From assembly GCF_900110865.1 (NCBI RefSeq), contig NZ_FOFD01000003.1, positions 372,001-436,000 on the forward strand: a stretch of 64,000 nucleotides of DNA, given 5' to 3'. The translations under genes and the position numbers were made by a program. The notes under the pieces were generated by a model. The model did no database searches and was not told the origin of the DNA. It worked only from the letters and a program-made list of their open reading frames with translations. Positions 40,660 to 44,759 of this stretch are shown here, in pieces (positions within the stretch are counted from its first letter, which is position 1; every line of letters begins with the position of its first letter). Source of the DNA: Natrinema salaciae (GTDB taxonomy: Archaea > Halobacteriota > Halobacteria > Halobacteriales > Natrialbaceae).

Positions 40660-41040
40660 TCAGTAAGAGATCGTCTCGAGACCGGTGACGGTTTCGAAGT
40701 GGCTATCTCGAGTAACGAGCGATGCGCCGTGCCGTCGGCAGATCCCTGCGATGAGCACGTCCCCATCGCTGATCGGTTCACCCGCCGATCGGAGTTCGGC
40801 GATCAATCGGGCCGCTTCGATCGCCGCGTCGTGATCGAATTCGAGCGGCTCGATCCAATCGAGACCGTCACGAGCCGTCTCCAGATCGTCGCCGTCGTAG
40901 ATCGCAGCTCCCTCGTAGATCTCATACAGCGCGATCGCCGGAGCGTAATACACCGGTTCGTCGAGGCGCTTCAGGAGCTCTGCGGTCGCGCTTTCCCCCT
41001 CGAGGTAGTCTATCAGAAACGTCGAATCGAACGCGATCAC
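40660..41040 (-). CDS. vapC: PIN-domain toxin, VapC-like, 126 aa
   Basis: MIAFDSTFLIDYLEG carries the first PIN Asp (residue 5). A conserved Glu follows near YEIYEG (about 42), and GEPISDGDVLIAGICRRHGA plus LVTRDSHFETV supply the remaining acidic residues of the metal site. VapC toxins cut tRNA or rRNA. Its ATG overlaps the antitoxin's stop (ATGA), the standard coupled toxin-antitoxin arrangement. Its target is unknown. Confidence 0.88.
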   Translation of the reverse strand: MIAFDSTFLIDYLEGESATAELLKRLDEPVYYAPAIALYEIYEGAAIYDGDDLETARDGLDWIEPLEFDHDAAIEAARLIAELRSAGEPISDGDVLIAGICRRHGASLVTRDSHFETVTGLETISY

Positions 41041-41294
41041 TGGTCCGAACTCCGGCCGTGCCGTTCGCGCAGTCGTTCCCGGCGCTCTCGAACGCCGTCG
41101 TCCAGGTTTTCGCCCGCCTCCTCGACGGCTGCTCGGAATCCGTCGGCGTCGGCGAACGCACCGAACCCCTTCATGACGTCCCGGTTAGATTCGGTCAACC
41201 GAAGGACGGTGTCCGTGAAGCTCTCATCGTCGCGCTTGTGCGACTTCAGTCGTTCGTAGGCCTCCTCCGTGATGGTTACCGTCTTCGTGGACAT
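41037..41294 (-). CDS. vapB: VapB-like antitoxin, 85 aa
   Basis: ATG 41294 (MSTKTVTITEEAYERLKSHK) starts a short ribbon-helix-helix-type N-terminus, typical of archaeal VapB/DUF217 antitoxins, followed by a flexible charged C-terminus (REEAGENLDD-like, ending RERHGRSSDQ) that would wrap VapC. The upstream in-frame ATG at 41327 adds Cys/Thr-rich residues and is unlikely. It is translated first and probably autoregulates the pair. Confidence 0.85.
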   Translation of the reverse strand: MSTKTVTITEEAYERLKSHKRDDESFTDTVLRLTESNRDVMKGFGAFADADGFRAAVEEAGENLDDGVRERRERLRERHGRSSDQ

Positions 41295-41411
41295 ACGTGT
41301 ACACGTAAACATACACTGTACGTTCATAAAGATCTCGCGGTCCGGATGCGGCGTTCAACGTTCGAACGTCCCGTCAGGGCACTTATTTTACCGGAGCCCC
41401 TCATTTGGGGT

Positions 41412-42302
41412 ATGAACTGGCAGGCGGACTGGGGATTGCGGCTTCGAATGTTCGTGACGATGTTCCTGCTGTTCGCGCTGTACATCGTCTTCGCGGGTGT
41501 ACTCACCACAATTATTTCGGGCGGTGCGAACCTGCTCATCTTCGGGATGATCTTCGGCGGGTTCTCGCTCGTCCAGTACTACTTCAGCGACACGCTGACA
41601 CTGCGGAGCATGGGCGCGAAGACGGTCTCGGCTGACGAGTACCCGCAACTGCACGCCTCGATCGACCGGCTCTCCCAGCAGGCCGACCTCCCGAAGCCGA
41701 AGGTGGCGGTCGTCGACTCGAGGGTACCCAACGCCTTCGCGACCGGGCGCAACCAGAAAAACGCGGCCGTCTGCGTGACGACCGGACTGATGAACTCGCT
41801 CGAGCAGGACGAACTCGACGGCGTCCTCGCGCACGAACTCGCGCACGTGAAGAACCGCGACATGATGGTGATGACCATCGCCTCGTTCCTCTCGACCATC
41901 GCGTTCATGATGGTCCGCTGGGGGGCCTTCTTCGGCGGCGGGCACGGCCGCGGCCGCGAGGGCGGGGGCGGCGGCATCGTCGTCGCCATCCTCGTCTCGC
42001 TGATCGTCTGGATCATCAGCTACCTGCTCATTCGGGCGCTCTCCCGCTACCGCGAGTACGCCGCCGACCGCGGGGCCGCCGCCATCACCGGCAACCCCTC
42101 CGCGCTCGCCTCGGCGCTGCTGAAGATCTCCGGCGAGATGGACAAGGTCCCGAAAGACGACCTGCGCGAGGAGGCCGAGATGAACGCCTTCTTCATCATC
42201 CCGATCAAGTCCGGCATTGTTGGACGACTCTTTAGCACGCACCCGCCGACGGAAAGACGGGTCAATAAACTACGAAATATTCAACAAGAAATGTCTTTAT
42301 AG
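41412..42302 (+). CDS. htpX: HtpX-like membrane zinc metalloprotease, 296 aa
   Basis: M48-family protease with the HELAH zinc motif (VLAHELAHVKNRD, about residues 138-150) and the third ligand Glu in YREYAADRGAAAITGNP (about 216). Four membrane segments (about 12-32, 38-55, 155-175, 193-212) flank the active site. A Gly/Arg-rich loop (GGGHGRGREGGGGG) lies between helices 3 and 4. HtpX degrades damaged membrane proteins. ATG 41412 follows a TATA-like CTTATTTTACC (about 41381). Its likely functional partner, the pspAB-like gene, lies 1.85 kb downstream, beyond the AT-rich island. Confidence 0.92.
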   Translation: MNWQADWGLRLRMFVTMFLLFALYIVFAGVLTTIISGGANLLIFGMIFGGFSLVQYYFSDTLTLRSMGAKTVSADEYPQLHASIDRLSQQADLPKPKVAVVDSRVPNAFATGRNQKNAAVCVTTGLMNSLEQDELDGVLAHELAHVKNRDMMVMTIASFLSTIAFMMVRWGAFFGGGHGRGREGGGGGIVVAILVSLIVWIISYLLIRALSRYREYAADRGAAAITGNPSALASALLKISGEMDKVPKDDLREEAEMNAFFIIPIKSGIVGRLFSTHPPTERRVNKLRNIQQEMSL

Positions 42303-42385
42303 GGAGTAATACACTGAAGATAATAATATTGGTTAGTAGTAGATCAATTCAACAATTACAATAGATAACTACCTATTTGTGAAAT

Positions 42386-42826
42386 TTAGATCTCGTTTAC
42401 GACTACACGACCATTATCAGCCGTGTCAACAGGGACATTGGTATTCACCTCTCCATTCGTAAGTCCGATAACTTCTAAGCCAATTCGGTGCTCATTGTTG
42501 AAAAACCCATAAGCATCGAATTTAGCTTCTGTATATCCCCTGAGCTGGAGATCAGTCTCTTCTGAGTCTTTTTCAGTATAACCCAAAAAGCGCCAATCTA
42601 TCGCAGTACTCTGATTATGCGACACATGGCCATATGATATTTCTCCATTATCTACTTCCCATTCAAGTTCTACATCAACCCTTGAAGTACGTTGACCTAG
42701 ATTTCTCCTGACTGCCTCATAAGCAACGTTGTAATCACCTGATGAACTTCCTGCTGCAGGAAGGGTTCCGATACTCAAAGCAGTCACTGTTCCTCCGATC
42801 GACTTTAGGGCTTGTCTTCTATTCAT
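42386..42826 (-). CDS. Tat-exported unknown protein in the AT-rich island, 146 aa
   Basis: ATG 42826 gives MNRRQALKSIGGTVTALSIG, a Tat signal without lipobox Cys. A GTG at 42844 would add six residues. The mature part (about 110 aa) is rich in polar and aromatic residues and probably beta-stranded (VDVELEWEVDNGEISYGHVS). I find no known family. Its codons are AT-rich, unlike the flanking genes. It follows the 221-aa exported protein by about 20 nt, so both are likely one transcript and perhaps secreted together. Confidence 0.72.
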   Translation of the reverse strand: MNRRQALKSIGGTVTALSIGTLPAAGSSSGDYNVAYEAVRRNLGQRTSRVDVELEWEVDNGEISYGHVSHNQSTAIDWRFLGYTEKDSEETDLQLRGYTEAKFDAYGFFNNEHRIGLEVIGLTNGEVNTNVPVDTADNGRVVVNEI

Positions 42827-42845
42827 TTTTATTTTATAACTCACG

Positions 42846-43511
42846 CTATAATGGGGTACTCTCGTTGATTAGCTCTGCATTCCCATTATTCCAACATCTC
42901 TGGAGAATCTCAGCAGTTACATTCCGAACCGTGAAACCAACATTCAAAGAAAATTGGGCTCGCTCCCGTGCATCAAATCGTTCGCTGGTTTCATTCCGGA
43001 TCTGTGAACTAGCTTCACCATCATATGTTGTGAACGATTTGCCATAGCCATCCTGATCTGTACTTGCATTGCGCCAAGATTCTCCGTCAAATTCCCATTT
43101 AATTAGCTGTTCTAGTTCATATCTGACATTACCTGCAATTGTTGCCCTAGCTGTATGGATCGATTCCATAGATTCATAATCGTCTTCGGACATAATTCCA
43201 TACATTTCCTGGAGCTCTGTCGTCATTTCCCAATCAGGATTAAGTAGTACATCTATGACTGCCTCTTCTTGATCCTGATTTAATTTGTCCTCTAACTCAT
43301 CTGGGGCATTTGATTCATCGTGTGCTTCTATGAATTGTATCACTTCTTTCCGATTTTTAGGGTCAAAATCAGTAACACTCTTACTATTTTCTTTCTCACC
43401 ACTCACAGGTCCGACTAACCCATTACCTAGTGATAGTGCTGATACACCTAGTACTGTAATAGTCTTCCTTCTGGTTATGTCTGTATAACCATTATCGTCT
43501 TTTTCTACCAT
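42846..43511 (-). CDS. Exported unknown protein with Tat-like signal in the AT-rich island, 221 aa
   Basis: ATG 43511 starts a protein with TRRKTITVLGVSALSLGNG (about residues 13-31), a Tat-type signal with RRK. The mature part is acidic, largely helical and contains a single Cys (ILQRCWNN). No family is recognised. A TATA-like TTTATTATAT (minus strand, about 43533-43524) stands just upstream. Sequence is strikingly AT-rich relative to the chromosome, implying recent acquisition. It is first of a two-gene unit. Confidence 0.72.
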   Translation of the reverse strand: MVEKDDNGYTDITRRKTITVLGVSALSLGNGLVGPVSGEKENSKSVTDFDPKNRKEVIQFIEAHDESNAPDELEDKLNQDQEEAVIDVLLNPDWEMTTELQEMYGIMSEDDYESMESIHTARATIAGNVRYELEQLIKWEFDGESWRNASTDQDGYGKSFTTYDGEASSQIRNETSERFDARERAQFSLNVGFTVRNVTAEILQRCWNNGNAELINESTPL

Positions 43512-44153
43512 CCAGATAGATATAATAAACCTATGTATTTAGTTCTTTCCACTAGATATTGTATCTGGTTTTCACAATCACATACCATACATTAGAATAT
43601 TAAATTCAAGTATTTTGTTAGTTATTCACTAGCTTCATTTTGAGACTTATTTCTGGATAGGACGTTCATATCGGGGTGTATTCTAGACAATAGACTGTAA
43701 TATCAAAATATACTATTGTGCGGGTAGCTCATCAAAGTTAACCGAAATGCTAGAGATTCAGTGAGTGTTATTTCCGCAATGACAGCCACTACAAACCTGA
43801 ATACAACGAATGAACCGCGTCCATTAATTCCGCTGAGCTATGGCGACCATCTAGAGAAAACTAGCAACCTTAAACGGAGGAAAGTGGTCACAACAAGAAT
43901 GGAAATAGTAACGGGAAGACCCTGTCAACCACTCCGACTTTGCTGAAGTAAGATTGTATCTGAGCTAGAATCCCTTATAAGAGTTTCTGAAGCCTCTATT
44001 GTAATTTCAATCCAATAATTCTGGTTGTGAGATGTTGGTGTCACCGATAAATGTCGGAGTACTGCGCTTCACGGACTATTGCATTGATGACAGTACATGA
44101 GTTGCCATGGTAAGAACAGAGACTTTGAAGCCTGTGGTCGCTTGACATTGTGT
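43512..44153. other. AT-rich non-coding part of the island
   Basis: About 640 bp of strongly AT-rich DNA. The only frame of note (43761-43946, 61 aa) has no promoter or ribosome site and no recognisable relative. No terminal repeats, integrase or transposase remains are visible. GC content returns to the chromosomal level abruptly at about 44150, where the pspAB-like gene starts. Confidence 0.5.
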
Positions 44154-44759
44154 ATGGGACTACTGGACGGACTCCGCGCCATCCTCGGCTCGCGCGCCGA
44201 AGCCGACGCCGGACGCGACGCCGACCCCGACGACCTCTTCGGGATGAGCACCGCCTACCTCACGATGCAGGCCGATCTGGGCTACGAGTCGCTGGACGTC
44301 GGCGCACTCTGTTTCTCCGGCGTCGATTCGAGCGACTTCCGGAACGCCGTCGACGAGGTCGAGGCGATCCTCGAGGCGGGCCGGGAGGAGACCGGGACCG
44401 GCTTCTCGGTCACGTCGGACGATCACGGCTATCACTGGGTCGTCCTCACGGACGACGACCCGGAGGACCTGATCACGAGCATGCACTTCGCCGCGGACAC
44501 CTTCATCGAGCACGACTACGGCTCGCGGCTGCTGGCTGCCGTTTTCGCCTACGAAGATCGCGACGGGACCGCGTACTGGATCTACTCCTTCCGTCGCGGC
44601 CGGTTCTACCCCTTCGTGCCGCGGTCCGGCCGGGAACGCGACTCGAGCGCGGAGTTCAAACTCGAGTCGGCGCTGGACGGCGAACTCGAGATCGAGCGCG
44701 AGAAGGAGTACTGGTACCCGCTCTGGCCGAGCGAGCGCGGCACCCATCCCTGGGAGTAG
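44154..44759 (+). CDS. pspAB: PspA-associated protein PspAB-like, 201 aa
   Basis: MGLLDGLRAILGSRAEADAG followed by DPDDLFGMSTAYLTMQADLG is what I recall of the haloarchaeal protein named PspAB, linked to the PspA membrane-stress system and often next to htpX. The rest is a compact alpha/beta domain with HYHWVVLTDD-like and FYPFVPRSG segments. ATG 44154 is the family start; the longer frame from 44097 runs into the AT-rich island. The island's right edge abuts this gene, so its native promoter may have been replaced. Confidence 0.8.
   Translation: MGLLDGLRAILGSRAEADAGRDADPDDLFGMSTAYLTMQADLGYESLDVGALCFSGVDSSDFRNAVDEVEAILEAGREETGTGFSVTSDDHGYHWVVLTDDDPEDLITSMHFAADTFIEHDYGSRLLAAVFAYEDRDGTAYWIYSFRRGRFYPFVPRSGRERDSSAEFKLESALDGELEIEREKEYWYPLWPSERGTHPWE

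What the first reader, a model, noticed from the sequence alone, without database searches (positions are those of the whole stretch)
42303..44153. AT-rich island with two exported unknown proteins between htpX and pspAB
Base composition drops sharply from about 42300 to 44150 and returns at the start of the pspAB-like gene. The two island genes encode Tat-type exported proteins without recognisable family and with foreign codon use. htpX and pspAB are, as I recall, usually neighbours, so this looks like an insertion into a membrane-stress locus. No integrase or repeats remain. Two small coupled secreted proteins could be a toxin-like pair or surface factors.
Basis: partly seen in the sequence, partly recalled or inferred. 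Interest (0 to 1): 0.62.

Follow-up and report, generated by a model that had tools for sequence, protein, structure and literature searches.

The report
Imported haloarchaeal secreted-protein pair at htpX
A salt-loving archaeon has picked up a short AT-rich piece of foreign DNA between two membrane-stress genes; it encodes two exported proteins of a patchy, undescribed family whose relatives usually sit beside dedicated membrane proteins, which suggests, but does not prove, a secreted weapon with self-protection.

Summary
GC falls from 0.67 to 0.40 over 42.26-44.15 kb (z = -11). 24 of 28 congeners have htpX and pspAB 24 bp apart; none carries these genes there. The import begins inside htpX: its last ~15 codons are foreign but still HtpX-like. 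Four other congeners hold different inserts at this spot, so it is a gene-exchange site. pspAB keeps its own TATA-like element.

The exported proteins, A and B, are not orphans. A belongs to a patchy Tat-exported family (44 of 392 order genomes) matched by no Pfam, NCBIfam or PADLOC model. Of 31 A-type loci examined, 14 adjoin an ABC-2 ATPase plus permease and 9 others a small multi-spanning membrane gene. B occurs convincingly in 5 of 392 genomes, always beside A. Relatives carry A, a 3-TM gene C, and B; another genome keeps C intact with A decayed; the window lacks C.

Most likely: an acquired secreted-effector (halocin-like) cassette that lost its membrane partner. The acquisition is well supported; the antagonistic function is inference (~0.4). 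No activity, fold or known toxin homology was shown.

The parts
41412..42302 (+). htpX (M48 metalloprotease); last ~15 codons of foreign, AT-rich origin
   Evidence: Pfam PF01435; blastn homology to relatives ends about 42253; mean identity to congeners falls to 0.51 at 42264-42293
42254..44153 (.). imported AT-rich segment
   Evidence: ML composition change 42262-44155; homology to relatives ends 42253 and resumes 44152/44153
42386..42844 (-). gene B, Tat-exported, 152 aa (GTG start; ATG at 42826 possible)
   Evidence: ORF; convincing homologues in 5 of 392 order genomes, always beside A
42846..43511 (-). gene A, Tat-exported, 221 aa: signal, helical FDP domain, predicted beta domain
   Evidence: ORF; family in 44 of 392 order genomes; low-confidence model
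43512..44153 (.). unique AT-rich stretch without an evident gene, upstream of A and pspAB
   Evidence: 43512-44150 has no match in 124 other family genomes; no Rfam match
44123..44130 (+). TATA-like element of pspAB (CTTTGAAG, -31 to -24 from the ATG)
   Evidence: AT-rich core at -30 to -25 in 22 aligned relatives with spacers
44154..44759 (+). pspAB, native GC; start by comparison with relatives (one search lists an upstream ATG)
   Evidence: Pfam PF22742; relatives

Best explanation
A ~1.9-kb AT-rich cassette was acquired horizontally at the htpX 3' end, in a spot where haloarchaea repeatedly exchange genes between the conserved anchors htpX and pspAB. It replaced the htpX tail and the 24-bp spacer and left pspAB a promoter-like element (shown by comparison). 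The cassette encodes A and B, Tat-exported proteins without a lipobox. In relatives such proteins are coupled to a membrane protein: an ABC-2 exporter, or a small 2-4-TM protein such as C. Inferred: A (with B) is a secreted antagonistic effector of halocin or bacteriocin type, and the ABC-2 or TM partner gives self-protection or export. The window copy kept A and B but lacks C, so it is a relic, relies on another protection, or A and B act differently.
For: Insertion: composition; 24 of 28 congeners compact, 4 with other inserts; foreign in-frame HtpX tail. Function: of 31 A loci, 14 have ABC-2 ATPase plus permease within 3.5 kb (16 ATPase hits in 210 kb near A against 3 in 220 kb far), in several orders and orientations. 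Small >=2-TM ORFs lie within 1 kb of 9 of 17 loci tested, against 120 of 1468 random placements. One ATPase scored best on daunorubicin-resistance drrA and second on lantibiotic protection, both below cut-off. A-C-B in G081 and G083; A-B-2TM in G288 and G235. In G079 C is open, A decayed, B not detected. A and B look to be under purifying selection in G081/G083 (NG86 dN and dS 0.036/0.338 and 0.069/0.238).
Against: No toxin, enzyme or bacteriocin model matched. No fold match: model A pLDDT 51, best Foldseek E 0.12; model B pLDDT 29. C, the putative protector, is absent from the whole genome holding the window (0 matches), which is awkward if A and B are toxic to self. 8 of 31 A loci, the window included, have neither partner. 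In G081 it is B that is broken by an insertion sequence. C shows only weak constraint (dN and dS 0.051/0.089). No antagonism data exist for these proteins.
Confidence: 0.42

Rival explanations
1. A is an extracellular partner of the ABC-2 exporters or small membrane proteins (pump accessory, envelope biogenesis or drug resistance), not an effector.
For: The constant feature is membrane-gene linkage; one ATPase scored best on DrrA, a drug-efflux subfamily.
Against: The signals show no cysteine in most members, whereas I recall that haloarchaeal binding proteins are usually lipoproteins; gene order and partner type vary; A and B stand without any partner in the window.
Confidence: 0.25
2. The segment is the relic of an integrative element that targeted the htpX 3' end and restored the htpX tail; A and B are its cargo. 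(This concerns the route of arrival and can be true together with any function.)
For: The foreign in-frame htpX tail is what 3'-end integration leaves; four congeners have inserts at the same place; L039 repeats the htpX end before pspAB.
Against: No integrase in the island; no direct repeat spans it; inserts read in relatives contain ordinary genes; the repeated TTCTAAGG is explained by the pspAB promoter. Homologous recombination through the anchors explains the tail equally well.
Confidence: 0.25
3. A-B are surface or adhesion factors, or decaying passengers without present function.
For: Patchy presence; C absent; broken copies elsewhere (L119, G079).
Against: Both frames are intact; A and B look to be under purifying selection in relatives; membrane-gene linkage.
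Confidence: 0.25

Closest known systems
Halocins and halocin-like precursors (HalH4, HalC8, HFX_0892/HmHapP; PMC12893001: abstract, sections 9, 10 and 14 and passages read)
   Same: exported haloarchaeal proteins; the HmHapP activity lies in an N-terminal two-helix segment, and A has a predicted helical domain after its signal
   Different: no sequence match to any curated family; activity unknown; HFX_0892 itself was not compared (sequence not held)
Lactococcin 972-like bacteriocins (streptococcin B; PMC11796350: passages read)
   Same: secreted beta-sandwich protein in an operon with presumed immunity and transport proteins; A is predicted beta-rich and its relatives sit by ABC-2 genes
   Different: no Pfam match; Tat export, larger, archaeal; fold not established; lipid II, their target, is not an archaeal molecule (recalled)
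Archaeal 'dark matter' islands (PMC4158269: passages read)
   Same: fast-evolving secreted proteins with ABC transporters in variable loci, some read there as inter-microbial conflict
   Different: that paper does not mention HtpX or Halobacteria in its main text

Membership tests
halocin / archaeal bacteriocin | exported by signal peptide | tested here: met
   RR motifs in A and B by inspection; B of G235 passes the NCBIfam TAT_signal_seq cut-off
halocin / archaeal bacteriocin | match to a curated family model | tested here: not met
   no credible Pfam or NCBIfam match for A or B
halocin / archaeal bacteriocin | linked immunity determinant | tested here: inconclusive
   membrane partner at 23 of 31 A loci; absent in the window; immunity itself untested
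halocin / archaeal bacteriocin | inhibits related strains | not testable with these tools
   needs a bench assay
lactococcin 972-like bacteriocin | family profile match | tested here: not met
   no such Pfam hit in the A and B proteins scanned
lactococcin 972-like bacteriocin | beta-sandwich fold | tested here: inconclusive
   A model beta-rich but pLDDT 51, pTM 0.37; no Foldseek match at E <= 0.001
integrative mobile element | integrase or transposase | tested here: not met
   only A and B as evident genes in the island
integrative mobile element | flanking direct repeats | tested here: not met
integrative mobile element | restored 3' end of the target gene | tested here: met
   foreign but HtpX-like tail; homologous recombination would give the same
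anti-phage defence system | match to PADLOC models | tested here: not met
   0 of 6 proteins

The most novel reading that the evidence does not exclude
A defines an undescribed, modular haloarchaeal secreted-toxin family: Tat signal, a semi-conserved helical FDP module, and a diverging beta domain, sometimes with a second exported protein B. Its protection is interchangeable: an ABC-2 pump in some lineages, tiny multi-spanning proteins in others. It is traded through anchor-flanked gene-exchange spots such as htpX-pspAB, and leaves orphan protector genes (G079) behind.
Probability: 0.33. Interest if true: 0.68.

Novelty: new variant of a known kind. Interest (0 to 1): 0.45.

Why it matters
Few archaeal bacteriocins are known at gene level and their immunity is mostly undefined (recalled). 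A family of exported proteins with repeated, differently arranged ABC-2 or small-TM partners gives ready candidate pairs to test. The htpX-pspAB interval is also a clear case of an anchor-flanked exchange spot in which relatives hold different cassettes without a visible recombinase.

Tried and rejected
Site-specific attachment repeats: the TTCTAAGG motif repeated before pspAB looked like an att core, but alignment of 22 relatives with spacers places it as an AT-rich element at -30 to -25 from the ATG, that is, a promoter. Only the longer htpX-end repeat in L039 is left unexplained.

A and B as paralogues of one fold: profile comparison gave only the signal peptide (probability 2.7). B of the window group against B of G235: probability 83, E 9e-6, partly signal; single-sequence BLASTP of the same kind E 0.006.

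Virus or plasmid origin: no relative in viral contigs, no credible phage hit, no DNA match in phages or plasmids; two haloarchaeal plasmids hold distant A homologues. RNA family: none. tRNA: none in the window.

Structures: model B useless (pLDDT 29); model A poor, Foldseek nothing significant. Solved-structure profiles: one match for A over the signal region at E 0.017 and one for B at E 0.88, neither useful.

Literature: six searches found no description of this family or of an archaeal htpX-pspAB insertion in the titles and abstract starts listed. That says nothing about papers outside the library.

Full report
Observation. The stretch 42303-44153 has GC 0.397; all other stretches of that length in the window average 0.674 (sd 0.025, minimum 0.588), and the best-fitting segment is 42262-44155. 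It carries two genes on the minus strand, A (42846-43511, 221 aa) and B (42386-42844, 152 aa), one base apart, with GC3 of 0.32 and 0.33 against 0.87-0.90 in htpX, pspAB and two further neighbours, and a 640-bp stretch without an evident gene that no other of 125 family genomes holds. The neighbours are htpX and pspAB.

Insertion. In 28 congeneric genomes (29 loci; G072 is represented twice), htpX ends 24 bp before the pspAB start in 24 (give or take a few bases), and is separated by 374-981 bp (measured from HtpX residue 294) in four: G053, G077, G078 and G069. None of the 28 has B. Two, G062 and G066, have a distant A relative elsewhere in the genome. Homology of the window to relatives stops at about 42253, inside htpX, and resumes at 44152/44153. 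The last codons of the window's htpX are AT-rich and encode a divergent but recognisable HtpX tail. The incoming DNA therefore carried an htpX 3' end: either a donor with the cassette beside its own htpX, brought in by recombination through the flanks, or an element restoring its target. No integrase and no flanking direct repeat was seen.

The site. Across the family the interval varies from tens of bases to about 2.2 kb where the genes are neighbours, and in some genera the two genes are far apart. The contents I read in 20 chosen genomes with spacers were ordinary genes: a recurring membrane protein, a methyltransferase-like gene, others (part of that output was cut). I name these by eye, not by a family search. 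Aligned upstream of pspAB, 22 spacer-bearing relatives share an AT-rich element at -30 to -25 (two of 24 were left out because the start was misplaced by the script). The window keeps CTTTGAAG there, so pspAB probably retains its own promoter.

What A and B are. A has close relatives in G081 and G083 (genus g16; 56 and 55% identity). A profile found the family in 44 of 392 genomes of the order at E <= 1e-4, very patchily; the weakest of these matches cover little more than the signal peptide. B was found in 6 of 392 at E <= 0.001; the sixth match (G279, E 4e-4) covers only the signal-peptide end. The other five, the window included, all lie beside A. Neither matches Pfam, NCBIfam or PADLOC at a credible level; PHROGs gave only weak matches to unnamed families (best E 0.009). 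Members share a Tat signal, mostly without cysteine, then an FDP-type helical stretch and a predicted beta-rich part; the model is of low confidence and gave no significant fold match.

Membrane partners. In G081 and G083 a 109-aa 3-TM gene, C, lies between A and B; in G081 an insertion sequence splits B. In G288 and G235 A overlaps B and a 55-aa 2-TM gene follows. The G235 A matches the A profile at E 7e-20, and the G235 B matches the B group at E 9e-6, probability 83%. For 31 A loci I counted DrrA-like ATPases: 16 within 3.5 kb of A in 210 kb, against 3 in 220 kb further off. 14 loci have an ATPase with a permease. One such pair was checked: ABC2_membrane_2 and ABC_tran in Pfam, drrA best and lantibiotic-protection ATPase second in NCBIfam, both below cut-off. 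Of 17 loci tested for small genes with at least two predicted TM segments within 1 kb, 9 had one, against 120 of 1468 random placements (crude hydropathy). Some loci are near-duplicates (L068/L069, L070/L071, L065/L066, L105/L106), so the counts are not independent events. Eight loci have neither: the window, L073, L111, L113, L114, L116, L119 and L121; L116 and L121 have a permease match alone, and L111 an ATPase match alone. L121 was tested for ABC genes only.

Losses. C was found in 3 of 125 family genomes and not in the genome of the window, nor as a remnant in the island. In G079 C is open (61-67% identical), while only a broken 3' remnant of A precedes it and B was not detected. Loss of the exported protein with a surviving membrane gene is what a toxin-protector pair would leave. 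Absence of C in the window, with A and B intact, is the opposite and counts against the simplest version. Between G081 and G083, dN and dS by NG86 are 0.036/0.338 (A), 0.069/0.238 (B, partial) and 0.051/0.089 (C).

Reading. Shown: foreign DNA at this junction, homologous genes elsewhere, linkage of A to membrane genes. Inferred: that A and B act outside the cell against competitors and that the membrane gene protects the producer. Precedents are the halocin precursors activated by halolysin (PMC12893001: abstract, sections 9, 10, 14 and passages) and the lactococcin-972 type with presumed immunity and transport genes (PMC11796350: passages). I found no sequence relation to either. Organism names (Natribaculum breve for G049, Halopiger djelfimassiliensis for G012, Natrialba chahannaoensis for G044, Halobacterium hubeiense for G209) rest on equal contig lengths.

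Noticed in passing
window 40660-41327 (-): A VapBC-type pair (PIN domain and VapB-like antitoxin) sits just upstream of htpX.
   Followed up: no
L020, L045, L055, L056, L057, L059 (htpX-pspAB interval): The same ~185-aa membrane protein gene occurs at this site in several genera, a sign of exchange or ancient presence; G069 (L026) has a different insert that looks by eye like a toxin-antitoxin pair.
   Followed up: partly
L119:4773-5482 (own genome, G000:C4): A second, distant A-family copy has a TGA at the twin-arginine site of its signal, so it is probably broken.
   Followed up: partly
L065:9258-10331: An insertion sequence with a 330-aa transposase-like ORF splits gene B in G081.
   Followed up: partly
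window 42354-42365 and 43995-44006: A perfect 12-nt inverted repeat near both ends of the island; chance is not excluded in AT-rich DNA.
   Followed up: no
L132:5241-5759 (G079): An open C gene beside a decayed A remnant, without B: a possible orphan protector gene.
   Followed up: yes
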